From Lachnospiraceae bacterium (lineage in GTDB: Bacteria; Bacillota; Clostridia; Lachnospirales; Lachnospiraceae): a stretch of DNA of 40,638 bases. Shown here in pieces: positions 13,170 through 26,769 of the stretch. Positions within the stretch are counted from its first letter, which is position 1. Every line of letters starts with the position of its first letter. The position numbers and the translations under genes are program-made. The notes under the pieces were generated by a model, which saw only the letters and a list, made by a program, of their open reading frames with translations, was not told the DNA's origin and did not search any database. The stretch is taken from the NCBI GenBank assembly GCA_022792835.1, contig JAAWBT010000048.1, positions 1 through 40,638 on the forward strand. The letters run 5' to 3'.

Positions 13170-13184
13170 AGAAAATTGCAATAA

Positions 13185-13217
13185 AAAAAATCCGTGTCAC
13201 TATGGCACGGATTTTTT
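13185..13217. terminator. Bidirectional intrinsic terminator
   Basis: TCCGTG (13191-13196) pairs with CACGGA (13206-13211), and the stem is extended by A/T pairs on both sides. It ends in T6 on the plus strand and T8 on the minus strand. It stops the ABC-exporter operon. On the other strand it would stop anything transcribed leftward from the promoter at 13292-13320. Confidence 0.88.
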
Positions 13218-13239
13218 ATACTCAGAGATATGGAAATTT

Positions 13240-13264
13240 CTTTCGTGGAATGTTCTATTCTACG
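13240..13264 (+). repeat. Inverted repeat, left (candidate recombination site)
   Basis: Matches the reverse complement of 14698-14722 at 23 of 25 positions. The core is CGTGGAA, a 7-bp spacer TGTTCTA and TTCTACG (13244-13264): inverted arms around a short asymmetric spacer, as in tyrosine-recombinase core sites. Confidence 0.75.
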
Positions 13265-13291
13265 TCTGATATCCGAAAAAGAATCACTTAA

Positions 13292-13320
13292 ACTATATCG
13301 GATATTTGCAGTTCTGTCAA
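13292..13320 (-). promoter_or_regulatory. Strong outward (leftward) promoter, OFF orientation
   Basis: On the minus strand, TTGACA (13320-13315), a 17-bp spacer and TATAGT (13297-13292): a full -35 and a -10 with one deviation. The start would be near 13285. An 8-bp inverted repeat, ATATCCGA (13269-13276) and TCGGATAT (13298-13305), brackets the -10 and start and may be an operator. The predicted transcript crosses the left inverted repeat and meets the terminator at 13185-13217 after about 100 nt. No gene is served in this orientation. Confidence 0.75.
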
Positions 13321-13519
13321 CATTTCTTCCTATGTAAAACGGGCCTATTCCTTTTACAGTACAAAATTTGACCCCAAATACAAAAAAAACAGAATCAAAC
13401 CACTTAATATTTATATCGGCAAATCTTTTTATTTCTTTATAGACGGAAAAACATTTTTTGTTTAAACTATATGGCATTTATTTATCGTCAAAATTATGGT
13501 CGAAATGGAGGTAAATATT

Positions 13520-14644
13520 ATGCCAAGGACAGGAAAGAACATTTACAAAAGAAAAGATGGGCGTTGGGAAGGACGCTACATCAAAGAGCGGGTAAACGGA
13601 AAGGCGCGTTACGGAACCATCTATGCCAGGAATTATCAGGAAGTGAAGAAAAAGCTGGAGGAGGTAAAGAGTCAGAGGGAAAAGAGAGAACTTTTTTCTG
13701 CCAGGGCCGGTACGGTGGATGATTTTGGAAAACAATGGCTTTTGGAAGTTGCAGAATCTTTAAAAGAATCATCTGCCATTAAATATGAAAACTTACTTCG
13801 CTGCTATATTCTTCCGGAGTTTGGGGAGGATGATCTTTCAAGAATTACAAATGAACGGTTTATAGGATTTGTGGGACGTCTGCTGAAGAGTGGAGGTACG
13901 AACGGACAGGGACTTGCCCCCTCAACTGTGTCCGAAGTGGTGTCAGTGATGAAAGGGATACGTATTTATGCCATGAAAAGAGGCTGTTTGACGGCTTTCT
14001 CACCGGAATGTGTGACAGTCAGGCAGAATCCGAAGAAAATTCGGGTGTTCAGCCTGGAAGAAGAAAAAAGGCTGATTGATTATCTTCGCAACCATATGGA
14101 TCTCACCTGTCTGGGCATTCTGCTGTGTCTTTTCACTGGGATCCGGGTGGGAGAGATCTGTGCACTGAAATGGGATGACATCAGTCTCTCAGAACAGACC
14201 ATGCAGATAGGAAAAACCATGCAGAGGCTCCGTGTGGAGGAAGAAGTAGGAGCAAGAACAAAGGTAAAGATATCTGCCCCAAAAAGTGTATGCTCTGCCC
14301 GCATCATACCCTTGCCAGATGCGCTTATGGAACTTCTTTCCGAATACTATGTGGCGGGAGCATTTTTTCTGACCGGGGACAGAGACCGCTACATAGAACC
14401 GCGGACCATGCAGAACCGGCTGCGGCGGATATTGGAGGCGAGCGGCATCCAAAAAGCCAATTTCCATACTACTCGCCATACTTTTGCGACAAGATGCATT
14501 GAAATGGGATTTGATGTAAAAACCCTCAGCGAGATTCTTGGTCATGCCAGTGTTTCCATTACCATGAACCGTTATGTCCATCCTTCTATGGCATTGAAGG
14601 CAGAACATATGAACCGCCTATCCGAGTTATTTGTCGTCAAATAA
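13520..14644 (+). CDS. Tyrosine site-specific recombinase (integrase family)
   Basis: A 374-residue recombinase. The N-terminus (GKNIYKRKDGRWEGRYI) is an integrase DNA-binding arm, followed by a SAM-like core-binding domain (about 65-165) and the catalytic domain. Catalytic residues are all present: Arg209 (TGIRVGE), Lys255, His316/Arg319 (HTTRHTF), His342 (ILGHAS) and Tyr352 (NRYVHP). The ATG at 13520 follows GGAGG by 8 nt. It lies alone between two inverted repeats, with no excisionase, relaxase or phage genes nearby. A DNA-inversion role is therefore more likely than mobilisation of an integrative element. The preceding 349-bp gap holds the terminator, left repeat and outward promoter described separately. 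A promoter for this gene was not clear. Confidence 0.93.
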   Translation: MPRTGKNIYKRKDGRWEGRYIKERVNGKARYGTIYARNYQEVKKKLEEVKSQREKRELFSARAGTVDDFGKQWLLEVAESLKESSAIKYENLLRCYILPEFGEDDLSRITNERFIGFVGRLLKSGGTNGQGLAPSTVSEVVSVMKGIRIYAMKRGCLTAFSPECVTVRQNPKKIRVFSLEEEKRLIDYLRNHMDLTCLGILLCLFTGIRVGEICALKWDDISLSEQTMQIGKTMQRLRVEEEVGARTKVKISAPKSVCSARIIPLPDALMELLSEYYVAGAFFLTGDRDRYIEPRTMQNRLRRILEASGIQKANFHTTRHTFATRCIEMGFDVKTLSEILGHASVSITMNRYVHPSMALKAEHMNRLSELFVVK

Positions 14645-14697
14645 CTGGTCAGAAGTTTTGTAAATCAAGTCAGAATGCGGGATAAAGGACGATCTTT

Positions 14698-14722
14698 CGC
14701 AGAATAGAACATTCTACGAAAG
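14698..14722 (-). repeat. Inverted repeat, right (candidate recombination site)
   Basis: Reverse complement matches 13240-13264 at 23 of 25 positions, with the same 7-bp spacer in opposite orientation. With 4 more bases on its left the site is itself a 29-nt near-palindrome (14694-14722; 12-bp arms with one mismatch). It lies between the recombinase and the TnpB-like gene, 57 nt before the latter's start. Confidence 0.75.
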
Positions 14723-14779
14723 CATGTGGCTATGTATATAAGAACAGGAAAAAACTCATTTCATCGAAGGAAGATGTGG

Positions 14780-16111
14780 ATGCCGCAGAAAACAATATAC
14801 AAGACAATCTGCCAGTACAGCAAGCTTCCAATTGCTGCCCGGGATATGGGGCGGCTGCAGGAGATTGCCAAGGACTGCAGAAAGGTTAAAAACTATGTGT
14901 ATGAACGCTACGGTGGAGTGGGCGGCTTTGCCAAAATCTATCCGGGCTATACGGTGCAGAATGAGATGACAAAGAGCGGACTCAGAGAGAAGCTCGGGCT
15001 TCCGGCCGTGTACTTCTATCTCTCTATTTTCGACGCACTTGGGGATATCAAGAGCCAGTGGACCAGGACCAAAAAGCAGATTGAGAAAAATATCCGGGCA
15101 AATGAGAATCTGACTCCAGAAGACAGACATTATCTCAGATTTATCATGAAGCAGAGCAATTGCTTCGAAGCGGTTTTGACTGGAGGGGAGATTTCCTTGA
15201 CAGGAGAATGGGAAATACGGTACAGAGCAGTCTGCGGCGAAGTGGATGCCCATAGGTTGGAACAATATCTGCGCAGACAGGTACGAAGACATCTGGTCAG
15301 GCCCCATACAGATACAGCAGACGGTTTTTCAGTCTCCCCGAAAGGATATCGGTATGCAGACCACGGTATCTATCTTTCCATGAAAGAAAGCAGGAAGAGG
15401 CTCTTCATCCTTTTGACAGACAACAACCGGTATACAAGGCAGATATATATCCGCCTTTATCCAGAGGAGGGAAGGGTGACGATCAATGTACCTGTGGAGG
15501 TAAAGCAGAAACATCCGCCGGGTTATGAAGGAGAGATGGGGCTGGCAATGGGGCTTAAATGTATGTTTGTGACAGACCAGGGCAGGACATACGGTGAAAA
15601 ATACCTGGAGTATCAGTCTGCTCTCACCGACTATGTGCGGGAAAGGCTGACCCGCCACGGTAGGAATGCGAAGAGCAATCCCGGCATGAAAAAATATAGT
15701 GCGGGGAAGGCGAGGCTGGAACGGGCATTGCACGACTATGTGAATGTGGAGATTAACCGATTGCTGGAAACAGAAAAGCCGGGGACCATTTACATTCCGA
15801 AACTGCCCGCGTTGTCTAAAGCAGGCATCAACCGGAGGGCAAACGCTACGGTCAGTATGTGGCAGAAAGGGTTTGTGAAGAGCAGACTGATTCAGAAATG
15901 CTGGGAACGCTCCGTCGAGCTGGTGGAGGTGTTCGGTAAAGGGATTAGCAGCCGGTGCAGCGGCTGTGGAGAAGAAGGACAGCGAGAAAATGAGGAGTTT
16001 TTCTGTGCGTCCTGCAGACTGAAACTGCCGGAGAGGCAGAACACGGCAAGGAATGTCCTGCAAAGAGGACGTGCTCTTCGGGAAGAAAAAGACGCACAAA
16101 GAAATTCATAA
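14780..16111 (+). CDS. TnpB-family protein with degenerate RuvC site (predicted nuclease-dead)
   Basis: A 443-residue protein with TnpB/OrfB layout. The N-terminal region begins KTIYKTI. A RuvC-like half follows, and the C-terminal zinc finger is intact (CSGC at 393-396, CASC at 409-412). By eye, the three catalytic acids are gone. The first RuvC motif, usually G-I-D-L-G, reads GLAMG (254-258). The second, usually with Glu in I-E-D-L, reads YIPKLP. The third, usually D-R-D-x-N-A-A, reads PERQNTA. The frame is unbroken, so the protein seems maintained rather than decaying. ATG 14780 follows AAGGAAG by 6 nt; upstream in-frame GTG/ATG codons lack a site. Established precedent: TldR proteins, nuclease-dead TnpB relatives, are RNA-guided repressors next to surface genes such as flagellin. 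No TnpA transposase is present. A decayed insertion-sequence relic is the alternative. Confidence 0.8.
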   Translation: MPQKTIYKTICQYSKLPIAARDMGRLQEIAKDCRKVKNYVYERYGGVGGFAKIYPGYTVQNEMTKSGLREKLGLPAVYFYLSIFDALGDIKSQWTRTKKQIEKNIRANENLTPEDRHYLRFIMKQSNCFEAVLTGGEISLTGEWEIRYRAVCGEVDAHRLEQYLRRQVRRHLVRPHTDTADGFSVSPKGYRYADHGIYLSMKESRKRLFILLTDNNRYTRQIYIRLYPEEGRVTINVPVEVKQKHPPGYEGEMGLAMGLKCMFVTDQGRTYGEKYLEYQSALTDYVRERLTRHGRNAKSNPGMKKYSAGKARLERALHDYVNVEINRLLETEKPGTIYIPKLPALSKAGINRRANATVSMWQKGFVKSRLIQKCWERSVELVEVFGKGISSRCSGCGEEGQRENEEFFCASCRLKLPERQNTARNVLQRGRALREEKDAQRNS

Positions 16112-16129
16112 AAAGTTTATAAAGAAGGA

Positions 16130-16397
16130 CTTTGCGGATGAACGTGCCCCGTGGGCGCGTTTGACTGAAACCGGAGACGGGAATAGGAACGCAGAAAAAT
16201 TCTTTTGATAAAAAACAAAGACGGCCTTAGAAGCCGGCTCCTCCTTGGAGGCGGGTATTGGGTAGGCCAAGACCCATGGGAACTCAGAGGGCAGATGTTT
16301 TCTGCGCTTTGAGAAGTACCGGGAGCGAAGCGGGCAGGAGCGCTGCGTGATAAAAAATCATGTGGCGGAGAGTGCCAGCATCACCTGAAGAGGGTGA
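16130..16397 (+). ncRNA. Highly structured RNA, candidate TnpB-type guide scaffold
   Basis: The 344-bp gap after the TnpB-like gene has no gene but many hairpins. They are: UUUGCG/CGCAGA (16131-16136 with 16191-16196), closing a junction that holds a 9-bp stem (16141-16149/16153-16161) and a CCG-GAGA-CGG GNRA hairpin (16171-16180); a CUUG-loop stem near 16230-16241; UGGGU/ACCCA near 16259-16276; a 13-position stem with one mismatch (16283-16295/16301-16313); an 11-bp stem (16341-16351/16357-16367); and UCACC/GGUGA (16381-16385/16393-16397). TnpB guide RNAs (reRNA/omega RNA) are encoded at exactly this place. A structured mRNA leader for the next operon is the alternative. No terminator is visible, and the guide segment cannot be identified. 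Confidence 0.55.
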
Positions 16398-16456
16398 CAA
16401 AATATGCCTTATTAAAAAGAAACAGAATGTGAGGAAGTAATGGGGGAGATATCTGG

Positions 16457-17371
16457 ATGAAAAGATACAGCAGAGGCGCAGGGGGAAAAAGAAAGAGACT
16501 TTGCTCCGTATTAATGGCAGCTCTGCTGACCGGAGGAGCGTGCTTTCTGCAGGGAGAGGCTGCTCAGACTGAGGAGGAAAGCAAACTGGAAACCAGATTC
16601 TGGAAAGAGGAGACAGAGAATTCCGAGACAGAGAGTGTAGAACCGGTGGCCATGGAAACAGAAATCACTTCAGGAGAAACACCGGAGACTGACATGGACA
16701 TTCCGGAGTCCGGCATTTCCGAAACAGAAGGTTCCAGTTTGGAAAGCGCGAAGGCAGTCTTTTTGGAGTCGATCGAGACAGAAACGGGAGTGTCCGATCC
16801 GGAATCGGAGGAAAGGGAAGTTCAACAAACAGAACAGCCTGTCGGGGAGTTTTCAGGAGCAGAGGGTGTCGCATGTCTGCAGATTCCGGAAAGGCTGGAG
16901 ATTGTCATAAACCCATGGGAAATGGACGGAAAAGAGCAGATTTATTCGGAACCTTTCGCAGTGAGAAATATGGGGAATGTCCCGGGTGTTGTGACTGTGT
17001 CTTTCACTTGTATGGTAAATAAGAAGGAAGGAGCAGAACTGAGGGAGACCAGGGAAGGACTTCATAGTTCCGGGGAAAAGCTGATTTATATGAAGGTAGT
17101 ACTTGGGAATGGAGAGGAAACTCTTTTTACCAGGGAAGGGGTCCAGTGTCAGGCAAAGCTCCAGCCTGGGGAAGAGATGTCCCTGTGGTTTGAGGGGGAA
17201 GTGAATGAAAATGCTGATGAGCCCTGGAAAAGCGGAGATATAGAGATTGAAGGCCGGTATTTCTGGGAAGAAGCGGTCTTATCCCGGGAGGAGGGCAAAA
17301 GCAGTTCCGGAACGGAGCAGACAATCGTCGGAGAACAGGTTGAAGGAGGAATAGAAGAAACAGATGGATAA
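16457..17371 (+). CDS. Secreted protein with acidic linker and surface domain
   Basis: 304 residues, no recognised family. A basic N-terminus and hydrophobic stretch (about 14-36) form a signal peptide. Residues 37-130 are a Glu/Ser/Thr-rich, probably unfolded linker. From about 138 a beta-rich domain runs IPERLEIVINP...QIYSEPFAVRN. It matches the start of the protein at 17942 (VPTTLAVAVDQ...QIYSEEFTIAN), so the two share a domain and may assemble together. The start is ATG after GGGGGAG. It overlaps the next gene by 8 nt. No sortase motif is present. The leader upstream is the structured RNA region, so expression may depend on it. Confidence 0.8.
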   Translation: MKRYSRGAGGKRKRLCSVLMAALLTGGACFLQGEAAQTEEESKLETRFWKEETENSETESVEPVAMETEITSGETPETDMDIPESGISETEGSSLESAKAVFLESIETETGVSDPESEEREVQQTEQPVGEFSGAEGVACLQIPERLEIVINPWEMDGKEQIYSEPFAVRNMGNVPGVVTVSFTCMVNKKEGAELRETREGLHSSGEKLIYMKVVLGNGEETLFTREGVQCQAKLQPGEEMSLWFEGEVNENADEPWKSGDIEIEGRYFWEEAVLSREEGKSSSGTEQTIVGEQVEGGIEETDG

Positions 17372-17867
17372 GAAAAAGAAAACGGTGGTCACCGTCAGTG
17401 TGATTGTGGCTCTTCTGCTTGTGGTTATTGGAGTGCTGGTTTTCCTGTTGCTTTGGAAAGGCGAAAAGGAGTCGGAGGGATATGTCATTGATGGGAATAA
17501 TTATCGAAAGATCCAGGAGAATATGGCCAATGAGGTGGCGGAGGGTTATTTTGAGACCTACATGAACACCACCTGGACATTTGGCGACGGGATGTCTGAA
17601 ACACAGGATGCAGTGCTGGGGAATTCTCCGAACAATACAAAGCCGATCCGGTGCGAAGTGATCCTGGAGGATACAGGGGAGGTCATATACAAGACGGGCA
17701 TACTGCCCCCGGGGGCAGTCCTGGAACCCTTTAAGCTGGATAAGGATTTGGATGCGGGAAACTATACGGCTGTCTGCCAGACCTACCTTTTAAAAGAGAA
17801 GGAGGATGGAACTTACGAGGATTTCAGCAGTGCCGGGTTTTATGTGACCATTGAGGTGGAAAATTAA
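17364..17867 (+). CDS. Membrane-anchored extracytoplasmic protein
   Basis: 167 residues: basic start, one strong membrane segment (about 8-31), then an outside domain. The pattern DTGEVIYKTGILPPGAVLEPFKL...LDAGNYTAVCQTY looks like an immunoglobulin-like beta-sandwich of the kind seen in small accessory proteins of Firmicutes surface-fibre operons. It overlaps the upstream secreted-protein gene and sits 75 nt before the major secreted protein, so it probably anchors or assembles its neighbours. No family name can be assigned from sequence alone. Confidence 0.8.
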   Translation: MDKKKKTVVTVSVIVALLLVVIGVLVFLLLWKGEKESEGYVIDGNNYRKIQENMANEVAEGYFETYMNTTWTFGDGMSETQDAVLGNSPNNTKPIRCEVILEDTGEVIYKTGILPPGAVLEPFKLDKDLDAGNYTAVCQTYLLKEKEDGTYEDFSSAGFYVTIEVEN

Positions 17868-17941
17868 ACCAGATAATTACGGCTCTCGACAAGGGGCAGT
17901 GATTATAGATAAAAATAATTCTTTTAAAGGAGGAAGAAGCA

Positions 17942-19207
17942 ATGAAAAGAAAGAAACTGGTATCAATGCTTACTGCAGGCGCACTTGCAGCGTCGATGGT
18001 ACTGCCGGCAATGGCGGCGGACGGCGGGACGGTCGATGTGGACGTGACCACCAAGACAGGGATCCTGAGAGTGGAGGTTCCTACGACCCTGGCGGTTGCT
18101 GTAGATCAGTTTGAGACCACGGACACTGGCTCTCAGATTTATTCTGAGGAATTCACAATCGCCAACAAGAGCGAGGTCAATGTGAAAGTCAGTGTGACTT
18201 CCACAGCGACTCTGGGAAGTGATGTGATGCTTGCAGCAAAGAGGGAGGATGTTGCTACGGCTGCTGGAGCTGGTGGAACGGCATGGCTGGCAGTGGCGGC
18301 CAGTTTAGACGGAACCAAGTATGAAGCTTCCAGTGATTTAGGAAAACTGAGCGAGGCAAGTGCAAATGTCACCACCTTCGCAAAGAACGGAGCGGCTGCG
18401 GCTGCGGCACAGACATTCTATCTGAAAAAAGGTACAGCAAACTCTGCAGCATATAAGCTTCTGGTGCCTTCAGCGGATGGAAAAAACAACGATGTTTCTT
18501 ATGCGCAGTTCTATAAGTTGACGGCACTTGCCACACAGCCGACAGATGATGCCACGCTTCAGACGGCAGTGAACGCCAGCGACGTTTATGTGGTAGTGAC
18601 TGCTAATGCAGGTAATGATGGGGAGGCAGTGACAAAACTTGCAAAGGGTTCTGCAGTTGCAAGCAGTACATTTGCAGGCACAAACACCTATTATACAATG
18701 GCAGAAGCGGCAACCACTGCGGCTGATCTGAAAGCAGCTGATGTTTATGCGTATGGGGAACTGACAAAAGAGACTGCGGGTGCAGATGCAGCATTCCGTT
18801 ATATTGGCGAATTATCTAAAAATAAAGAAACATGGGATGCAACTGATGTTTCCAAAATCAATATCGCCTATACTATCCAGGGACTTCCGCAGAGTATTTA
18901 TGACACTGCTGCTGCAGAAACTGGCGCCGATGGAATCGTATATGGGCTTTACAAGGAAAAACTTTCAGCAGTATATAGTGAAATAAGCGGTGCATACTGG
19001 ATTTCTATCGACAGGGACACTGGATTCGCGGCGGCGCCCACATCCCTTACGATTGGCGGTACTGCAAAAACTGCTGGTACAGATTATACTTTTGAAAAGA
19101 GCGGATGGATCAAACTGACTGCTAAACCCACTGCAGGCGATGAGATTGTACTGGTCGTAAATGGAACGATTTATAAAGCGACTGTTCCCACAGCTGCTAC
19201 GCCGTAA
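17942..19207 (+). CDS. Probable major secreted surface protein
   Basis: 421 residues with a clear signal peptide (MKRKKLVSMLTAGALAASMVLP, cleavage likely after AMA near 25). Ala/Thr/Asp-rich and Cys-free, which is typical of abundant surface or fibre subunits. An N-terminal domain is shared with the protein at 16457 (QIYSE-F motif). The C-terminal 60 residues (SLTIGGTAKTAGTDYTF...) look like an Ig-like or CBM-X2-like beta domain. There is no LPXTG, membrane tail or S-layer repeat, so attachment would be non-covalent, perhaps through the membrane protein just upstream. AAAGGAGGAAG gives a very strong ribosome binding site. A hairpin after the gene should separate high expression here from the glycan genes. 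Confidence 0.8.
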   Translation: MKRKKLVSMLTAGALAASMVLPAMAADGGTVDVDVTTKTGILRVEVPTTLAVAVDQFETTDTGSQIYSEEFTIANKSEVNVKVSVTSTATLGSDVMLAAKREDVATAAGAGGTAWLAVAASLDGTKYEASSDLGKLSEASANVTTFAKNGAAAAAAQTFYLKKGTANSAAYKLLVPSADGKNNDVSYAQFYKLTALATQPTDDATLQTAVNASDVYVVVTANAGNDGEAVTKLAKGSAVASSTFAGTNTYYTMAEAATTAADLKAADVYAYGELTKETAGADAAFRYIGELSKNKETWDATDVSKINIAYTIQGLPQSIYDTAAAETGADGIVYGLYKEKLSAVYSEISGAYWISIDRDTGFAAAPTSLTIGGTAKTAGTDYTFEKSGWIKLTAKPTAGDEIVLVVNGTIYKATVPTAATP

Positions 19208-19241
19208 TGTGAATGATGGTAATGTGGTAAGAAAAATAATT

Positions 19242-19275
19242 TTGGGAGGGCTGGGCATATGCCCTCCCAATTTAT
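19242..19275 (+). terminator. Hairpin, probably a leaky terminator
   Basis: A perfect 10-bp stem, TTGGGAGGGC (19242-19251) with GCCCTCCCAA (19261-19270), and a 9-nt loop. It is followed by TTTATG rather than a long T run. It likely stabilises or ends most surface-protein transcripts while allowing read-through into the glycan locus. Confidence 0.65.
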
Positions 19276-19312: not shown

Positions 19313-20488
19313 ATGAGAATTCGTATAGGCTGTTTGGATCAGGAACTACTGTGGGCGATAGATGACGTGATTGGTGGATTATATTCTATTGACCAGAAAA
19401 CTTTTGAGACAGAATGTGTGGTTGACTGCCGAAAACTGTTTCCCCATGGGAAATTTGGAGTGCTGTCTCTATTTAAATGGAAGGAAGACTATATTGTAAT
19501 TATCCCGCAGGAACTTAATCGAAAATGGATTTTTTATAATAAAGTTACTGAAGAGATAGAATACCGGAAGGTTATAGAAAAAAAATGCCAGGAAGTCCTG
19601 GTTGCAGCTGACCAGGATAGGAATCAGCTCTATTTCTTTCCCTTATATGTATATGATCCTATTTTGATTATGGATCTGAATACATTAACCTGTGCGCAGA
19701 CGATAGAAAACTGGAGCGGCAGAGTGCCAAATGACTGCCGCGAAACTGCATGGAAAGGGATATATGACGGGCAATATCTATTTTTTCCAATAAAAAACAC
19801 GAGAATTGTTGTACGGATGGATTGCGAAACCCAAAAAGTGAATTTGCTTGAACTTGATATATCACAAAATGTAATTGATGTGGACTATGCTTTTGGAGAA
19901 TTATGGGTGCTGCCTGTGAGCGGGGACAGGCTTTACCAGATTGACGAGAATGGCCGGGTGGTCCATAGCGTAGTATTGTCAGTGGAAAATAGGACAGATT
20001 CACTGCCCGCCTTTGCCAGAATCGTTGTCCAGAGAAGATATCTGTTTCTTTTACCATACTACCGGAAAGGGATCTATGTATGCCATAAGCAGAATGGAAC
20101 AACACAGGTTATTCCAAAAGAAAGCTCCAATTCCAGAAAAAAGAATAAGGAAATTTATTTGCGTTATTGGGAATATTGTGTCAAGGGTAATCAGATCTGT
20201 TTTTTGCCTTTTCGGGACAGTTACATTGAAATTGATTTAAATACTCTTGCGTATAGGAAGAGGGAATTATTCTATCCAAATAGTTGGTCAGATGAAGAGA
20301 AAATATGGAGAATTATTTGGAGCCATGTTTCAGAAAGGGATTCTATCATAAGGGAAAAAGACGAATGCAATCTGAAGCACTTCTCAGAATATCTGCAGCA
20401 TAAAACAAACAAAGATGATTTTTCAAAAAGCGATCACACAGGGGAAAAAATATGGGATGCCATGAAAAATCGAGGCAGGACGATATGA
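19313..20488 (+). CDS. Predicted beta-propeller protein, function unknown
   Basis: 391 residues with no signal peptide or membrane segment. About seven degenerate repeats of roughly 45 residues can be read, each with a core like L-x-F-x-P followed by I-x-x-x-D. Examples are LYFFPLYVYDPILIMDLNT, LFFPIKNTRIVVRMD, LWVLPVSGDRLYQID and ICFLPFRDSYIEIDLNT. Seven such units suggest a seven-bladed beta-propeller. It is the first gene of the A/T-rich glycan locus, just after the surface-protein hairpin. A binding or scaffolding role in surface-polymer synthesis is possible, but nothing points to catalysis. Confidence 0.75.
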   Translation: MRIRIGCLDQELLWAIDDVIGGLYSIDQKTFETECVVDCRKLFPHGKFGVLSLFKWKEDYIVIIPQELNRKWIFYNKVTEEIEYRKVIEKKCQEVLVAADQDRNQLYFFPLYVYDPILIMDLNTLTCAQTIENWSGRVPNDCRETAWKGIYDGQYLFFPIKNTRIVVRMDCETQKVNLLELDISQNVIDVDYAFGELWVLPVSGDRLYQIDENGRVVHSVVLSVENRTDSLPAFARIVVQRRYLFLLPYYRKGIYVCHKQNGTTQVIPKESSNSRKKNKEIYLRYWEYCVKGNQICFLPFRDSYIEIDLNTLAYRKRELFYPNSWSDEEKIWRIIWSHVSERDSIIREKDECNLKHFSEYLQHKTNKDDFSKSDHTGEKIWDAMKNRGRTI

Positions 20489-20528
20489 GAATTTTATTTT
20501 ATAGGGGATTAGTACAAGGAGACATAAA

Positions 20529-21503
20529 ATGTACAGGGATGATGGAATAAACTGGATAAAAGTTTTGCCAAATAGAAGAATATATATTTTTGGAGCAGGA
20601 TTCAACGGAAACAGATTGTTGGAGAAGCTTAATGCGATAGGTAACTGTGAGGTTGCTGGATTTATAGATAATGATCCAAAGAAAGTTTATAATTTCAAGG
20701 CCGACACAGGTAAACAATTGAAATGCTTTCTGCTGGAGGATTATAAAAAGATAGAAGATAAGAATGATATTCTTATTCTTTCAACAGCAATTCCAGAGAT
20801 AGGAAAACAATTGATTGAGAACCACATCTATCATTATGTGGCGTGGAATCAGATTGATTTTTCTACAGTAGGTGAGGAGCATTATAACGAGGATTACTTT
20901 TCGCTGCAGATCGAGTATGCCAGGATAGATTCAGAAACGGAAAAAGATTTTTTCCAGAGATATATCAAAGAAAAAGACTGTATTGCAGAATTTGGATGTG
21001 GGGGAGGTTTGTTATTAAGCAAACTGAAATGCCAGTCAAAGGTCGGGGTTGAAATTAATCCGGCTGCAGGTGGCCATGCAGAGAAACTCGGGATAAGGAC
21101 AACTGGAAGCCTCGAGGATCTTGAGGACGAGAGCCTGGATGTCATTATTTCCTATCATGCGCTGGAACACTGTTTGAATCCATATGGGATTGTATCGGAA
21201 ATGTATAAAAAGTTAAAGCCTGCCGGGAAATGTGTTTGTGTTGTCCCTTATGAACCATTGTCTTATGAATATTCGAAAAATGATGTAAGTCAACATTTGT
21301 ATATCTGGAATCAAAGGACGCTGGGAAATCTGTTTAGGGCAGCCGGATTTTACATTAGGGAAACAGGGACAAGAGAGGTGGCCTGGCCAGTGAGATGGAG
21401 ACATATGTACGATAAGAATACAGCAGACTGGTTTCACGCACTGTCTGTATTAGAATCAGACAGAACCGGCTACTTTAGTGTTTATGTGGTTGCGGAAAAA
21501 TGA
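20529..21503 (+). CDS. SAM-dependent methyltransferase with N-terminal Rossmann-like module
   Basis: 324 residues. The first 110 carry IYIFGAGFNGNRLLEKL...GFIDNDPKK, the nucleotide-binding-like module that recurs in this locus. From about 150 there is a class I methyltransferase: motif I IAEFGCGGGLLLSKL, the acidic end of strand 2 in GVEIN, and DVIISYHALEHCLNP as motif IV. It probably methylates a sugar or lipid intermediate of the surface glycan. The start is ATG after AAGGAG. The target is unknown. Confidence 0.85.
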   Translation: MYRDDGINWIKVLPNRRIYIFGAGFNGNRLLEKLNAIGNCEVAGFIDNDPKKVYNFKADTGKQLKCFLLEDYKKIEDKNDILILSTAIPEIGKQLIENHIYHYVAWNQIDFSTVGEEHYNEDYFSLQIEYARIDSETEKDFFQRYIKEKDCIAEFGCGGGLLLSKLKCQSKVGVEINPAAGGHAEKLGIRTTGSLEDLEDESLDVIISYHALEHCLNPYGIVSEMYKKLKPAGKCVCVVPYEPLSYEYSKNDVSQHLYIWNQRTLGNLFRAAGFYIRETGTREVAWPVRWRHMYDKNTADWFHALSVLESDRTGYFSVYVVAEK

Positions 21504-21534
21504 ACAGAGGAATAACTTGAGAAGGAAGTGTTAA

Positions 21535-22026
21535 ATGGTAATTGGAATTTTGAAAAAGCAATTGAAAACAGCATGTCATATAGGGATCATTTTTTTGATC
21601 GGTTTTCGATTTGCTTTATTTGTGGGGAAAAACAAGGATAAAACAATACAAAAATATAAAACATATTATCAAATGCTGGTATCATGGATGGATTTATTGG
21701 AAAGAGGAAAGTATTTAAGCAATTATCTGGAAAAATATGGATACAATAGAGTGGCTGTCTATGGAGGACATGATACAGGGAGGCATCTTGTAAAGCAACT
21801 ACAGGGGACGAGAGTCTGCGTGGAATATATAATTGATCGGGATGGTTCATTGAAAAATAATAATTTTTTACCCATCTATCATCCAGATGATCAATTACCA
21901 AAAACAGATGCAATTGTTGTGACACCAATTTGGGATTATCAAAATATCAAAGAGAAATTATCAGCGAAAATCAGTTGTCCAGTTATTTCGCTGCAGGAAA
22001 TCATTGAGGGAATGAAAGATGTATAG
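21535..22026 (+). CDS. Stand-alone Rossmann-like module with N-terminal membrane segment
   Basis: 163 residues. A hydrophobic stretch (about 12-31) could hold it at the membrane. The rest is the module seen fused to neighbouring enzymes: VAVYGGHDTGRHLVKQL, an acidic IIDRDG turn, a short IYHPDDQLP segment and DAIVVTPIWDY. Here it has no catalytic partner domain. It overlaps the next glycosyltransferase gene by 8 nt, so the two products may act as a pair, replacing the fused form found in neighbouring genes. The function of the module is unknown. Confidence 0.75.
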   Translation: MVIGILKKQLKTACHIGIIFLIGFRFALFVGKNKDKTIQKYKTYYQMLVSWMDLLERGKYLSNYLEKYGYNRVAVYGGHDTGRHLVKQLQGTRVCVEYIIDRDGSLKNNNFLPIYHPDDQLPKTDAIVVTPIWDYQNIKEKLSAKISCPVISLQEIIEGMKDV

Positions 22027-22837
22027 ACTGGCAATCGTAGTTTTAAATTATCTGAATTATGAGGACACGATCGAATGTGTAGACAGCATATTAAAAATGC
22101 AATATCCAATATGTGGAATCGTTATTGTGGAGAATGGTTCTCATAATGCCTCACTGCGGATACTGAAAAAAACATATAAGGATATAGAACAGATTCGGAT
22201 AATAAAGAGCAGGAAAAACAGAGGATACGCAAGGGGAAATAATATTGGAATTATTTATGCCAGAAAACATCTAAAAGCAGAATATGTTTTAATTGTTAAT
22301 AATGATACCGTGATGATTGATAAAAATTATGTAAAGGGTCTGCTCAATAAATATGAACCGGGCGTTGGCGTAATAGGAAGTAGGATTCTGTTAAAGAATA
22401 ATAAAGAACAGCCTCCCATGTTGTGCTATTTGGGGGTCCGGGATTCCATATTTCGATATGTGAACAGATTGTCGGAAAAATATGGAAGCAATTTTGATTT
22501 CCCGGAAACGGAGGGAAAGCCTGCGTATATTTTGCACGGATGTACGCTGCTGTTTACTCCGGATTTTTTTCGACGCTTTCAGGGGTTTTATAAGCGTACA
22601 TTTCTATATTGTGAAGAGGCCGTATTATATCTTATGTGTCAATATAAAGGGTTGAGGCAGGTCTATGTGCCGGAAGTGAAGATATACCATAAAGAAGATC
22701 AGTCGTCTCTGATGAGCTTTCAGAATGATAAGACAGTTTTGAATAAATATACAGTCCAAAGCCAAAAATATGTAATTTGGTGGGCTGTAAAATATAGGAT
22801 TCATTTGTTTTTTAAGCAGAGAAAAAGGTGTGTCTAA
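22019..22837 (+). CDS. Family 2 glycosyltransferase, rhamnosyltransferase-like
   Basis: 272 residues with a GT-A fold: IVVLNYLNYEDTIECVDSIL at the start, then ENGSHN, NRGYARGNNIG and the metal-binding NND. The NRG-x-A-x-GNN motif is typical of WbbL/RfbF-type rhamnosyltransferases. It lacks the Rossmann tail of its neighbours, but the preceding overlapping gene encodes that module alone. It transfers a sugar from a nucleotide donor during surface-polysaccharide assembly at the inner membrane face. Donor and acceptor are not predictable. Confidence 0.9.
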   Translation: MYRLAIVVLNYLNYEDTIECVDSILKMQYPICGIVIVENGSHNASLRILKKTYKDIEQIRIIKSRKNRGYARGNNIGIIYARKHLKAEYVLIVNNDTVMIDKNYVKGLLNKYEPGVGVIGSRILLKNNKEQPPMLCYLGVRDSIFRYVNRLSEKYGSNFDFPETEGKPAYILHGCTLLFTPDFFRRFQGFYKRTFLYCEEAVLYLMCQYKGLRQVYVPEVKIYHKEDQSSLMSFQNDKTVLNKYTVQSQKYVIWWAVKYRIHLFFKQRKRCV

Positions 22838-22855
22838 GATTGAGGAATATACAAA

Positions 22856-24052
22856 ATGCAGAAAAAAGAACCGATGGTATCTATTATTGTACCAATATAT
22901 AATGCAGAAAAATATTTATTCCATTGTATCGAAAGTGTTTTAAACCAGACATATAAAAATATTGAGGTAATTCTTGTGGATGACGGTTCCAGTGATAACA
23001 GTCTTAAAATCTGTATGGAGTACTCAAAAGCGGATGAACGGATAAGAATTATACAGGGCAGCCATCAAGGGGTGGTTTTGGCCAGAAAAAGGGGAGTAAA
23101 AGAGGCGAAGGGGGAGTACTGCATATTTGTAGACAGCGATGATTGGATAGACAAGTATCTGTTAGAATCTACGGTGCCCATGACAGAGGGCGGAAGTGTG
23201 GACATTGTAAATTATAATTTATGCAGTGTGGATAACTCTGGAGTAAGGCGCTGGAAATATACGGTTCCAGAAGGACGATATAAAAAAGAATCATTAAAGG
23301 GCATCTATGGGAAAATGATATTTGATTTTCAGTATGGCTGCCCGGGACTTATCCAGTCATTGTGTACGAAATTGATCAGAAAAGAAGTATTGTGGAGCTG
23401 TCTTAAAGACGTAGATCAAAGAATTACATTGGGAGAAGATGCAGCAGTCGCTTATCCCATGATGTTAAGGGCAGAAAAGGTTGTTGTGCTTCACAAAGCT
23501 TTTTATTTTTACAGAATACGTCCGGAATCCATGTGTCATTCAACGGATGATGAGATCTTCGCTAAAGTGTCTTTATTTCAGCAATATATGCAAAAGGTTT
23601 TTGGGAAATACAGTAAAGAATATCAGTTGGAAACTCAGCTGCGGGCCTATTTATTGAATTATATAACGAAAGGCATTAGAGAGATGTTTTCCATAAAGCT
23701 GGAAAATCTGTATCAGATGCCCATGGGGTTGTTATCCGGTACAGATAGAAGAATTGTACTGTATGGGGCGGGTAAAGTTGGTAAATCGTATTATAGACAA
23801 TTGGCGAGAGAAGATAATGTCGATATTGTCGCATGGGTAGATAAGGGAAAAGCAGGTCAAAAAATATATGATCGTAGGATTGAGTCTCCAGGAATTATAA
23901 GCGGGATTAGATTTGATAAAATAATGATTGCAGTAAAAGACTGGGAGACTGCTGAAGAAATAAAAAGTGAATTAAAAAAGTTTGTTTTTCTGTCACAAAT
24001 TCTATGGGATACGCCGCGGTCAAGCTGGTGGGAGAGGGAAATAGAACTTTGA
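22856..24052 (+). CDS. Family 2 glycosyltransferase with C-terminal Rossmann-like module
   Basis: 398 residues. The GT-A domain (about 1-230) has VSIIVPIYNAEKYL, VDDGSSDNS and the metal-binding VDSDDW. The C-terminus (about 300-390) has VLYGAGKVGKSYYRQL, a VDKGKAG turn and DKIMIAVKDW, the shared module of this locus. Its closest relatives in the window are the enzymes at 25540 and 27912, which also share GEDA/SEDK-type motifs in the middle. Confidence 0.9.
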   Translation: MQKKEPMVSIIVPIYNAEKYLFHCIESVLNQTYKNIEVILVDDGSSDNSLKICMEYSKADERIRIIQGSHQGVVLARKRGVKEAKGEYCIFVDSDDWIDKYLLESTVPMTEGGSVDIVNYNLCSVDNSGVRRWKYTVPEGRYKKESLKGIYGKMIFDFQYGCPGLIQSLCTKLIRKEVLWSCLKDVDQRITLGEDAAVAYPMMLRAEKVVVLHKAFYFYRIRPESMCHSTDDEIFAKVSLFQQYMQKVFGKYSKEYQLETQLRAYLLNYITKGIREMFSIKLENLYQMPMGLLSGTDRRIVLYGAGKVGKSYYRQLAREDNVDIVAWVDKGKAGQKIYDRRIESPGIISGIRFDKIMIAVKDWETAEEIKSELKKFVFLSQILWDTPRSSWWEREIEL

Positions 24053-24099
24053 CGGGGCTGCCCTGATGACCAGGAATTCAGAATGGAGAACAATAAAAA

Positions 24100-25473
24100 A
24101 TGTGCAAAGTGTCAGTTATTATGCCAGTCTATAACTCAAAAGAGTTCTTAAGCGTGGCGGTTGGAGGAATTTTAAGTCAGTCATACAGAGATTTCGAATT
24201 GATTTGCATAGAAGATGCCTCCACAGACGGTTCTGGTACTATACTTGCACAATATCAAAAAGGCGATCCTCGCATCCGCCTGGTCCGCCATAGTAAAAAC
24301 ATGGGAGCGGCCTGTTCCAGAAATGAAGGAATGGAACTGGCACGCGGCAAATACCTGTTTTTTGTGGATGCGGATGACGTGTTTGAAATGGATTTGTTGA
24401 AACGTATGGTTCAGACGGCGGAGCAAGAGCCTGTGGACATGGTATACATCAATTATGACATGTTTGAAGACGGAGAACTCTGTGATACTGATATACGGGG
24501 GAAATATTATCATTTTGGAAGATGTTTTTCTCAATATAACGAGATAAGAGCCTGCCCCAAAGAGTTGTTTAGGGCGATTCCACTGGCACCATACAGCAGA
24601 TTATACTCAAGTGAATTTCTTAGACGAAATACATTGAGATTTCAAAATCTCAAAAGTTCTAATGACGTATATTTTGGAATTATGGCTACATTGTTGTCTC
24701 AAAAGATTGCTTTTTTGGAGGAGCAGGTAAACTTAGTCCATGTGCGGTCACATGGAGGAAAATATCGGATATCGAATATGAGGAATCCATATGATAATTT
24801 CAGGGCATATATTTGTTTAAAACAGGAAATGGAGAGATTACAATTATCAGATGGAGATATTGGGCTTATTCAGGAGCGATTTTTAAACAATACTTTGTGG
24901 GAATTGAAAGGCTATGATCCAAAACGAGGGAAGGAATTCTACCAATTTATCAACGCAGAAGGCCTGGAAAGGATGGGCTTGCTAAAAGAAGAGAGCTTGG
25001 TAAACCTGGATTTTGCTTACCGGAGCATCGCAGAGTCCTTTACCAAAAAAACATTTGAAAGCAAATGGTTTGAAGATGTTCCATGGTTTGCTTATCACCT
25101 TGAAAAATGGAAAACAAAGGTTACGGGGCTTTTTAGGCAAATGGCTGGACAGGGAAAGGAATGTGGGATTTGGGGGGCCGGAAAAAATGGCAGATTGCTT
25201 GCGGATTTCTGCATGAAACATAATTGCCGGTGCAGGGGCATCATTGATAATAAAAAAGAAAAATGGGGAGAAACACTCTGCGGTTATGAAATCTTTTCTC
25301 CTGAAGAATTATTGGAAATTGTGGATACGGTGATTATTTCAAATCAAAGATATTTTAATGATATCTATGATCAGATAAAAACCATACATAAAGGAATAGA
25401 AATGATCTCTTTGGATATGTACTTGCAGTATGAACAAGATTTATGTTCCAGTACGATCCTGGTTGCGGATTGA
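24100..25473 (+). CDS. Family 2 glycosyltransferase with C-terminal Rossmann-like module
   Basis: 457 residues. The GT-A domain starts VSVIMPVYNSKEFL and has IEDASTDGSG, NMGAACSRNEGM and the metal-binding VDADD. A middle region of about 200 residues is unassigned. The C-terminal module (about 345-440) reads CGIWGAGKNGRLLADF...GIIDNKKEKWGETLCGYEIFSPEEL...DTVIISNQRYF, the clearest copy in the window. Its ribosome binding site is weak (GGAGA, 11 nt away). Confidence 0.9.
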   Translation: MCKVSVIMPVYNSKEFLSVAVGGILSQSYRDFELICIEDASTDGSGTILAQYQKGDPRIRLVRHSKNMGAACSRNEGMELARGKYLFFVDADDVFEMDLLKRMVQTAEQEPVDMVYINYDMFEDGELCDTDIRGKYYHFGRCFSQYNEIRACPKELFRAIPLAPYSRLYSSEFLRRNTLRFQNLKSSNDVYFGIMATLLSQKIAFLEEQVNLVHVRSHGGKYRISNMRNPYDNFRAYICLKQEMERLQLSDGDIGLIQERFLNNTLWELKGYDPKRGKEFYQFINAEGLERMGLLKEESLVNLDFAYRSIAESFTKKTFESKWFEDVPWFAYHLEKWKTKVTGLFRQMAGQGKECGIWGAGKNGRLLADFCMKHNCRCRGIIDNKKEKWGETLCGYEIFSPEELLEIVDTVIISNQRYFNDIYDQIKTIHKGIEMISLDMYLQYEQDLCSSTILVAD

Positions 25474-25539
25474 GAAAGATTGGCGTGGCTGTCCTTGTTG
25501 ATAAAGTGGAGAGATATCTGCCCAAAATAAAGGAATGAG

Positions 25540-26724
25540 GTGAAACGATTTATGGACGGAAGCAGCTATGGTTTATCTGTGATTGTGCCGGTTTATAATG
25601 CGGAATCAACACTTCAGTCTTGTGTAGAAAGTATTTTAAAGCAATCCTACAGAAATTTTGAACTGATCCTGGTAGATGACGGCTCTACAGACAATTCGCC
25701 TGTTTTGTGCGATGAATATGCACAGCAGGACAGCCGGGTGACAGTCATACATATCAAAAATTCCGGGACTTTTCAGGCAAGAAAGCAGGGGGCGAAAAGG
25801 GCTGTCGGGAAAATTCTTACATTCTCGGATGCCGACGACTGGCTCGAAGAGAATACATTTGAAGCGGCCTTGCAGATCTTGTGTAAATATGATCCGGATA
25901 TACTTGCCTATGCGTATGATTGTGGAGGCAGAGTGGAAAAGCATCTATATGGAGAAGGATTGTACTGTAAAAAAGAGATAAAAAACATAATCATTCCGGG
26001 AATGATGTATGATTTTTCTCACGGCAGAAGGAAACTGAATCCTTCCCTGTGCTGCAAACTGATAAAAAAACAGTTATTTGCAAAGGTGACAGAATCGGTA
26101 AAGGACAGGGTGACTCTTGGAGAGGATGCGCTTGTCACCTATCCTGCCGTATGTATGGCAGAAAGCATCTTTGTATGCAACAAGGCTTTGTATCATTACA
26201 GAGTCAACAGTTTTTCCTGTACGCAGACCTATCCTCTGGAAAGAATCCTAGAGATAAAGGCATTTCGGGATAACATGCTGCGGCTGTTTGACGGGATGGA
26301 TCTACTGGATCAAATGAGATATCAGGTCGAAAATTACGTACGGTCATTTTTGGCGGTGATGGTGAGAAAGTGGTATGGAATGGAGCTTTCGCCGATTTTG
26401 TTCAGCTTCCCTTATAGACATGTATCAAAAGGGGCAGGTGTTCTGATTTATGGAGCCGGAGATGTGGGAAAATCCTATATCAATGAACTAAAACTCACTC
26501 GCTATGCAGAGATTGCAGGATGGGCCGACAGAAACTATGGCAGCATAAAAGAGTATAACAGTGTGGATGTACTGGCTCCTGAAACAATAAAAGAGAAACG
26601 ATTTGATGTGTTGTTGATTGCGGTTTGGGAAGAAGACACAGCAAAAGCCATAGCGGCAGATTTGCTCAAGCTTGGAATTCCTGAGGAGAAGATTATGTGG
26701 AAAAAGCCGCTGCGGATAGTCTAG
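25540..26724 (+). CDS. Family 2 glycosyltransferase with C-terminal Rossmann-like module
   Basis: 394 residues from a GTG start placed after AAGGA; an ATG 12 nt later is the alternative. The GT-A domain has LSVIVPVYNAESTL, VDDGSTDNS and SDADDW. The C-terminal module (about 300-390) has VLIYGAGDVGKSYINEL, a WADRNYG turn and DVLLIAVWEED. Its middle region with TLGEDALVTYP parallels that of the enzyme at 22856, pointing to gene duplication inside the locus. Confidence 0.88.
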   Translation: MKRFMDGSSYGLSVIVPVYNAESTLQSCVESILKQSYRNFELILVDDGSTDNSPVLCDEYAQQDSRVTVIHIKNSGTFQARKQGAKRAVGKILTFSDADDWLEENTFEAALQILCKYDPDILAYAYDCGGRVEKHLYGEGLYCKKEIKNIIIPGMMYDFSHGRRKLNPSLCCKLIKKQLFAKVTESVKDRVTLGEDALVTYPAVCMAESIFVCNKALYHYRVNSFSCTQTYPLERILEIKAFRDNMLRLFDGMDLLDQMRYQVENYVRSFLAVMVRKWYGMELSPILFSFPYRHVSKGAGVLIYGAGDVGKSYINELKLTRYAEIAGWADRNYGSIKEYNSVDVLAPETIKEKRFDVLLIAVWEEDTAKAIAADLLKLGIPEEKIMWKKPLRIV

Positions 26725-26769
26725 TTTTTGAGAGAGAAAATCTGGCTTGGATTAAGGGGGGATTTTCAG

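What the first reader, a model, noticed from the sequence alone, without database searches (positions are those of the whole stretch)
13240..19270. Possible new system: invertible switch + nuclease-dead TnpB + RNA + surface operon
Order and orientation join four parts: an invertible promoter, a catalytically dead TnpB-like protein, a structured RNA and a three-gene secreted/membrane-protein operon, with no terminator visible from 14780 until 19242. A plausible model is that inversion turns on both the surface proteins and an RNA-guided regulator that silences an alternative surface gene elsewhere. A simpler model is that the dead TnpB/RNA represses its own neighbour. The combination of a tyrosine-recombinase switch with a dead TnpB is not one I know as described.
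Basis: inference. Interest (0 to 1): 0.87.

Follow-up and report, generated by a model that had tools for sequence, protein, structure and literature searches.

The report
Flippable dead-TnpB surface operon switch
Gut bacteria of the family Lachnospiraceae carry a conserved cassette in which a DNA segment that can flip appears to switch on, as one unit, a disabled relative of the TnpB/CRISPR gene scissors, a newly recognised structured RNA and a set of cell-surface genes, suggesting that a retired RNA-guided enzyme was put to work in on/off surface switching.

Summary
Present are: a tyrosine recombinase between inverted repeats (13240-13264 / 14698-14722), with the region's best promoter-like site inside, facing away from tnpB (OFF as assembled); a TnpB-like protein without RuvC catalytic residues; a structured RNA (about 16116-16413); and surface/glycan genes. 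A genome scan gave 266 related stretches; the best 80 were studied. All 102 proteins aligned lack the catalytic triad. The RNA follows tnpB in 78 of 79 loci with room and covaries strongly (420 double-changed cells, 123 in shuffles). Inverted repeats flank the promoter region in 55 of 70 loci (2 of 207 control anchors); the recombinase lies between the arms in 19 of 19 long cases and occurs in both orientations. Two other families of the order have recombinase plus dead TnpB. Best reading: an exapted TldR-like protein and RNA acting on their own phase-variable operon; that step is inferred. Nearest published case: hin/csrA-tldR (PMC13418256).

The parts
13182..13220 (.). Hairpin with T-runs on both strands (terminator-like) between the upstream ABC transporter gene and the switch; would stop OFF-state transcription
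   Evidence: Inverted repeat I2, 18 nt, 89%, 3-nt loop; terminator role is inference, and the scan does not list it
13240..13264 (+). Left inverted repeat of the switch
   Evidence: I1, 25 nt, 92% complementary to 14698-14722; equivalent repeats in 55 of 70 loci against 2 of 207 control anchors
13292..13320 (-). Promoter-like site TTGACA-17-TATAGT inside the invertible segment, facing away from tnpB (OFF as assembled)
   Evidence: Best of 45 matches, 11 of 12
13520..14644 (+). Tyrosine recombinase (open frame from 13496; start at 13520 suggested by relatives)
   Evidence: Phage_integrase 4.2e-29, SAM_3 1.2e-07; between the arms in 19 of 19 long-type loci
14698..14722 (-). Right inverted repeat of the switch
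14780..16111 (+). Nuclease-dead TnpB-like protein (open frame from 14726)
   Evidence: NCBIfam guided_TnpB 7.4e-15, below cut-off; Foldseek best AsCas12f 7.9e-13, TnpB 6.6e-12; no catalytic D/E/D in 102 of 102 aligned
16116..16413 (+). Conserved structured RNA, omega-RNA-like, ending ..ATATGCCTTATT
   Evidence: Downstream of tnpB in 78 of 79 loci with room; 96.2% of cells paired, 420 double-changed cells against 123 +/- 15 in shuffles; no Rfam match at gathering score
16412..16430 (+). Variable stretch in the position of a TnpB guide
   Evidence: no convincing second site in own genome
16457..17371 (+). Secreted-protein-like gene, 304 aa, first gene of the operon, starts about 44 nt after the RNA
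   Evidence: weak NCBIfam match to a sortase-dependent surface protein family, 0.005, below cut-off
17364..17867 (+). 167-aa membrane-anchored protein; its family is in 20 of 75 loci with a downstream gene
17942..19207 (+). 421-aa protein with signal-peptide-like start
   Evidence: sequence; no Pfam match
19313..30649 (+). Surface-glycan genes: methyltransferase, six GT2-type genes, CDP-glycerol glycerophosphotransferase; the gene at 19313-20488 has no clear family and the one at 21535-22026 was not scanned
   Evidence: Pfam

Best explanation
This is a phase-variable surface-glycan/surface-protein operon whose first unit is an exapted, nuclease-dead TnpB with its own omega-RNA-like RNA. Shown from sequence: a recombinase-bearing segment between inverted repeats holds the promoter-like site; tnpB, the RNA and the surface genes run in one direction with the RNA in the 5' leader of the surface genes; the protein lost its catalytic triad but keeps fold and zinc finger; protein and RNA are conserved together. 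Inferred: the recombinase flips the segment, so the cell makes dead TnpB, RNA and surface products together or not at all; dead TnpB binds the RNA, and the complex acts in cis on the operon it is made from. It could do so by holding the leader transcript, or by binding the operon's own DNA just after the RNA, where the guide-position stretch matches by construction, giving feedback or timing control of the surface genes.
For: Co-occurrence. Dead in 102 of 102, zinc-finger cysteines invariant in 22 of 22. RNA covariation; all 8 RNA model matches in 250 family genomes lie beside a tnpB (against the places). Both orientations: the recombinase points with tnpB in 15 and against it in 8 of 23 loci; among short-type segments the same kind of promoter (TTGACT-17-TAGAAT or TTGATT-17-TAAAAT) faces tnpB in some (L117, L120) and away in others (L122, L125, L132, L142); L137 and L150 carry 135- and 144-nt inverted flanks as a mixed-orientation assembly would give. 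Cis placement: the first gene's open frame starts within 60 nt of the RNA end in 29 of 73 loci, and only 5 of 73 leaders hold a weak terminator-like site, four of these being the RNA's own 3' hairpin. Guide-position stretch is mostly locus-specific: 56% identical at offsets 10-18 against 58-59% further downstream, in 320 non-independent pairs. Deep conservation: L176 (another family) has a recombinase-like gene, dead TnpB and a perfect 30-nt inverted repeat.
Against: No expression, RNA-binding or inversion data. All TldRs known to me act in trans through a guide. Target searches were limited: five guides, at most 3 mismatches in 18, incomplete genomes; a guide of 9-12 nt would be missed. In four of the five searches the non-self sites outnumber those of the reversed pattern (14 against 4, 3 against 2, 8 against 2, 4 against 9, 5 against 2), all at 2-3 mismatches. 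Offsets 2-10 are 69% identical, as much as the RNA's hairpin region (69%); I ascribe this to A/T-richness. Pairs of loci sharing 12 or more of 14 guide-position bases are 21, against 7 in a control region, though many share further downstream sequence. 15 of 70 loci show no inverted repeat by my criterion, and L047, L048 and L147 lack parts.
Confidence: 0.47

Rival explanations
1. Classical TldR in trans: the ON locus makes a dead TnpB with a guide that represses promoters of alternative surface loci or other genes, giving mutual exclusion.
For: TldR precedent with guide-directed flagellin repression and predicted cross-targeting (PMC13418256); up to three copies per genome; the RNA ends in a near-invariant motif followed by a variable stretch; weak-site counts above the reversed pattern in 4 of 5 searches and some guide-like sharing between loci, e.g. 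L129/L132 and L124/L142 with 12 of 14 bases.
Against: No convincing second site for five guides in four genomes; same-genome loci 59 hits against 62 for reversed guides; offsets 10-18 not conserved, e.g. 62% in L075/L082, 94% identical proteins of one genome.
Confidence: 0.28
2. Operon-specific antiterminator, analogous in position to UpxY or LoaP (recalled): dead TnpB on the leader RNA lets polymerase pass terminators of a long glycan operon.
For: Position at the head of long surface operons with a conserved leader RNA.
Against: Few intrinsic terminators in operon gaps: 3 of 232, against 11 of 125 upstream gaps; Rho-type termination was not examined.
Confidence: 0.12
3. Selfish or passenger cassette: recombinase, dead TnpB and RNA spread as a mobile unit with no regulatory role.
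For: The cassette sits before many different operons; TnpB ancestry.
Against: Conservation of a catalytically dead protein (58% mean column identity over 22 sequences) and covarying RNA; recurrent surface-gene neighbours.
Confidence: 0.08
4. The complex controls the inversion itself (directionality factor or recombinase repressor).
For: Adjacent to the recombination site.
Against: Short-type segments lack an adjacent tyrosine recombinase (0 of 25) yet keep tnpB and RNA.
Confidence: 0.05

Closest known systems
csrA-associated TldR loci with Hin inversions (Walker et al. 2026, PMC13418256; section 11 whole and found passages read)
   Same: Chromosomal nuclease-dead TnpB with downstream guide RNA, in gut commensals, behind a recombinase and an inverting promoter, linked to surface structures, several copies per genome
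   Different: There: serine recombinase Hin, about 120-bp segment, CsrA and flagellin, guides with fliC targets shown by ChIP-seq. Here: tyrosine recombinase inside a 1.4-kb segment (or short and middle types without one), glycan and surface-protein operons, RNA in the operon leader, no target found
TldR, TnpB-like nuclease-dead repressors (Wiegand et al. 2024; not held, recalled and as cited in PMC13418256)
   Same: Dead RuvC, omega-RNA-like RNA downstream, non-transposon neighbours
   Different: Guide-directed trans target not found here; most of the guide position not conserved
Bacteroides capsule invertons with UpxY (recalled)
   Same: Invertible promoter ahead of a regulator that heads a glycan operon
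   Different: UpxY is a NusG-like antiterminator; here a dead TnpB and RNA, and few intrinsic terminators in the operons
dCas12f with sigma factor (PDB 9n9c appears; biology recalled)
   Same: Dead Cas12f/TnpB-type protein used for transcription control
   Different: No sigma factor family stood out among the recurrent neighbours named, but none was specifically searched for

Membership tests
TldR (TnpB-like nuclease-dead repressor) | TnpB/Cas12f homology and fold | tested here: met
   (22 of 22 match guided_TnpB at 0.001; the window's score is below the curated cut-off)
TldR (TnpB-like nuclease-dead repressor) | Loss of RuvC catalytic residues | tested here: met
   102 of 102, some rows redundant between the two sets; positions anchored
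TldR (TnpB-like nuclease-dead repressor) | Structured guide RNA encoded just downstream | tested here: met
   Structured RNA in 78 of 79 loci with room, covariation; that it is bound and carries a guide was not tested
TldR (TnpB-like nuclease-dead repressor) | Guide complementary to a genomic target at a regulated gene | tested here: inconclusive
   Five guides, no convincing second site at up to 3 mismatches in 18, weak-site counts above the reversed pattern in 4 of 5; short guides not testable this way
TldR (TnpB-like nuclease-dead repressor) | RNA-guided transcriptional repression | not testable with these tools
   Needs ChIP-seq and RNA-seq
Inverton (recombinase-flipped promoter) | Inverted repeats flanking a promoter | tested here: met
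Inverton (recombinase-flipped promoter) | Both orientations occur | tested here: met
   Across relatives: recombinase 15 with and 8 against tnpB, promoter both ways; not shown by reads for the window itself
Processive antiterminator system | Intrinsic terminators inside the operon that need to be passed | tested here: not met
   3 of 232 operon gaps against 11 of 125 upstream gaps
Active TnpB of an IS200/IS605 or IS607 transposon | Catalytic triad | tested here: not met
   Triad lost in 102 of 102
Active TnpB of an IS200/IS605 or IS607 transposon | Transposon ends or TnpA partner | not tested
   Not searched for; a small serine recombinase precedes some short-type loci

The most novel reading that the evidence does not exclude
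A TnpB-derived complex that has given up distant targets and works on its own operon: its guide is whatever DNA follows the RNA, so each cassette is automatically programmed to its own locus, with the near-invariant T-rich junction (CTTATT) possibly serving as target-adjacent motif, which only a dead TnpB could tolerate. This would make it a portable, self-addressing RNA-guided control unit behind a DNA switch.
Probability: 0.25. Interest if true: 0.92.

Novelty: new variant of a known kind. Interest (0 to 1): 0.8.

Why it matters
It adds a clade of dead TnpB with at least 266 related stretches in one genome collection, a new structured RNA family and a new type of apparently phase-variable surface locus in gut Lachnospiraceae, including named strains (Schaedlerella arabinosiphila DSM 106076, Acetatifactor muris DSM 23669, Dorea sp. 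5-2). It makes directly testable how RNA-guided nucleases became gene regulators, whether such a regulator can act on its own operon, and how commensal Firmicutes vary surface glycans.

Tried and rejected
Guide targets: window, G004 (stretch shared by three loci), G067 and two Schaedlerella guides: apart from the tnpB loci themselves, no second site better than 2-3 mismatches in 18; non-self sites against the reversed pattern were 14/4, 3/2, 8/2, 4/9 and 5/2. One 2-mismatch site in G580 at 636869 was not followed. L047 lies beside a flagellin-like gene (by its N-terminal sequence), but none of the frames shown around the weak sites of its guide looked like flagellin. Same-genome loci: 59 against 62 for reversed guides. 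Guide sharing between loci (91 distinct): the bulk of pairs is as in a control region; pairs with 12 or more of 14 are 21 against 7, mostly where homology goes on or a second structured element follows, but L129/L132 and L124/L142 (12 of 14) and L028/L103 (11 of 14) diverge soon after. By region in 320 pairs: motif 87%, hairpin region 69%, offsets 2-10 69%, 10-18 56%, 18-58 58-59%. Antitermination: intrinsic terminators fewer, not more. Rfam: no match for the RNA or second element at gathering score; weak matches without that threshold look like chance. Phages and plasmids: 4 and 1 records, Thermus-type TnpBs and one uncultured phage. E. coli: none. Rows dropped: L042 from RNA profiles (no RNA); seven loci skipped and two more without a usable single hit before the RNA alignment, then 58 of the 70 listed references used; L137 and L150 from the promoter comparison; L130, L042, L048. 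A first automatic search for RNA ends missed many loci and was replaced.
Full report
What is there. The window looks like a Lachnospiraceae contig (its near relatives are named so). A tyrosine recombinase gene lies between inverted repeats 13240-13264 and 14698-14722. The best promoter-like site of the region, TTGACA-17-TATAGT at 13320-13292, is inside the segment on the minus strand, so the assembled state looks OFF and inversion would aim it at the gene starting at about 14780. Overall the simple scans find promoters and terminators at about the frequency of shuffles, so this site is carried by its quality and by the relatives.

The TnpB-like protein. It matches guided_TnpB below the curated cut-off, the C-terminal part of Cas12f and related chains by profile, and Cas12f/TnpB structures by fold (AlphaFold2 mean pLDDT 82.8, pTM 0.53; Foldseek 7.9e-13 to AsCas12f and 6.6e-12 to TnpB; TM-scores are low, about 0.33). 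Of 102 aligned family sequences (22 of alignment A1, the window among them, and 80 from named contigs, partly the same genomes) none has the first catalytic Asp (Ala 79, Ser 23), the Glu (Pro 60, Val 31, Ala 8, others 3) or the last Asp (Lys 65, Arg 36, Gln 1). The column assignment was checked against Cas12f (third motif) and Thermus phage TnpBs (first and second motifs; those phage proteins themselves have Gln at the third). The zinc-finger cysteines are invariant in 22 of 22.

Distribution. Seven of 11 genus genomes, own included, and 9 of 299 family genomes, own included, have it; a scan of named genome contigs gave 266 relatives, of which the best 80 were kept. In the order, 6 of 295 genomes matched, own included, with members in other families: G523, two copies in G566, and a partial match in G481 that I did not study. 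In G523 and G566 the proteins are dead as well (L176 and L178; L177 by eye), are followed by a recognisable relative of the RNA (by eye) and are preceded by a recombinase-like gene (by eye) where the contig reaches that far (L176, L177). L176 has a perfect 30-nt inverted repeat around it; L177 a weaker one, score 15. In L176 the RNA's pseudoknot letters are changed but still complementary (by eye).

The switch. Of 70 loci (window included) with at least 1.7 kb upstream, 55 have an inverted repeat scoring 15 or more that ends near tnpB, against 2 of 207 control anchors; at 18 or more it is 49 against 1. The 55 are 19 long, 9 middle, 25 short and 2 probable assembly mixtures. In all 19 long cases the recombinase lies between the arms. 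Over the 23 loci with a neighbouring tyrosine recombinase it points with tnpB in 15 and against it in 8. Four of the 81 loci have a small serine recombinase instead. In 26 short segments scanned, 3 have a clearly better promoter towards tnpB and 16 a clearly better one away from it. Fifteen of 70 show no repeat by this test, four of them with a tyrosine recombinase.

The RNA. A nucleotide profile finds it just after tnpB in 78 of 80 loci; L111 ends 22 nt after the gene and L147 has no match, so 78 of 79 with room (which prints 77; L089 is added by hand because its stop was misplaced by a read-through, and a few matches are split in two). On 58 sequences 96.2% of cells pair, with 420 double-changed cells against 123 +/- 15 in shuffles, and 29 of 45 pairs changed on both sides; the structure was derived from the same alignment, which favours it, but slid versions reach at most 82 such cells. 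The ATTG:CAAT pseudoknot is nearly invariant there and so neither supported nor refuted (18 of 58 lack one pair); L048 and L049 show complementary changes (by eye). A covariance model of the 3' part finds the RNA in 6 of 250 family genomes, own included, always (8 of 8) beside a tnpB. No Rfam family matches at gathering score.

After the RNA. The motif AAT[AG]T...TTATT is nearly invariant, the next 6-8 bases are A/T-rich, and then conservation fades. In 320 non-independent pairs of loci with 68-98.5% protein identity, offsets 2-10 are 69% identical, like the hairpin region (69%), offsets 10-18 are 56%, against 58-59% further on and 87% in the motif. So most of the place where a TnpB guide would lie shows no visible selection; the first bases may, or may only reflect A/T-richness. 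A tail of pairs shares 12 or more of 14 bases (21 against 7 in a control region). No convincing genomic target was found for five guides, although weak sites exceed those of the reversed pattern in four of the five. The open frame of the first surface gene starts within 60 nt of the RNA in 29 of 73 loci, nine of these starts being called inside the RNA, which puts the RNA into the operon leader.

Downstream genes. Of 75 loci with a downstream gene, 58 hold a conserved gene family without Pfam match in the one representative tested, 22 a DegT-type aminotransferase, 20 the 167-aa membrane protein family of the window, 15 a sugar epimerase family, 13 a signal-peptide-like protein family without Pfam match, 11 GT2 glycosyltransferases, 10 a cytidylyltransferase, 9 NeuB and 8 LicD (one representative per family tested). 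This is surface glycan and surface protein synthesis.

How it most likely works. The recombinase flips the promoter; in ON cells the dead TnpB, its RNA and the surface genes are made together. Because the RNA is in cis, most of the guide position is not conserved and no distant target is found, I favour action on the operon itself, either through the leader transcript or by binding the operon's own DNA, over distant silencing. This is inference; no binding or expression was measured. Intrinsic terminators are rare in the operon gaps (3 of 232 against 11 of 125 upstream), which speaks against antitermination.

Known work. The closest published case read here is Walker et al. 2026 (PMC13418256; section 11 whole, other passages by search): csrA-tldR loci with Hin and about 120-bp inversions, and guides that target flagellin genes. 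Wiegand et al. 2024 was not held and is cited from recall and from that paper. An inverton survey (PMC11892184, passages only) has no occurrence of TnpB in its main text. Ten searches, among them TnpB with invertible promoter, phase variation, antiterminator, tyrosine recombinase or polysaccharide, listed nothing on this combination other than PMC13418256; most results were seen as listings only, and the library lacks most subscription papers and bioRxiv.

Noticed in passing
L032, L037, L038, L117, L122, L125, L087, L091 just after the RNA: A second large structured element (closing stem with two or three arms, one arm of about 34 pairs in L032) begins right after the conserved RNA in a subset of loci from several genomes; no Rfam match at gathering score in the loci scanned.
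   Followed up: partly
L047 (G067): Here the dead tnpB lies next to a flagellin-like gene and has no glycan operon or inverted repeat by my test, reminiscent of TldR-flagellin loci; no flagellin match of its guide-position stretch was seen.
   Followed up: partly
L137 and L150, upstream of tnpB: 135- and 144-nt inverted duplications reaching beyond the repeat arms (in L150 into the tnpB start) look like assemblies of mixed promoter orientations, i.e. traces of inversion in the sampled population.
   Followed up: no
L048 (G205), L050 (G292:C75), L081, L089, L128, L133: Copies with stop codons in tnpB or broken into pieces: decaying members of the family or assembly errors.
   Followed up: no
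L034, L111, L122, L127, L134: A small serine recombinase-like gene precedes some loci, in place of the tyrosine recombinase.
   Followed up: no
L195 and L196 (Thermus phages): The phage TnpBs used for comparison keep the first two RuvC motifs but have Gln instead of the last catalytic Asp in the alignment, so they may be inactive too.
   Followed up: no
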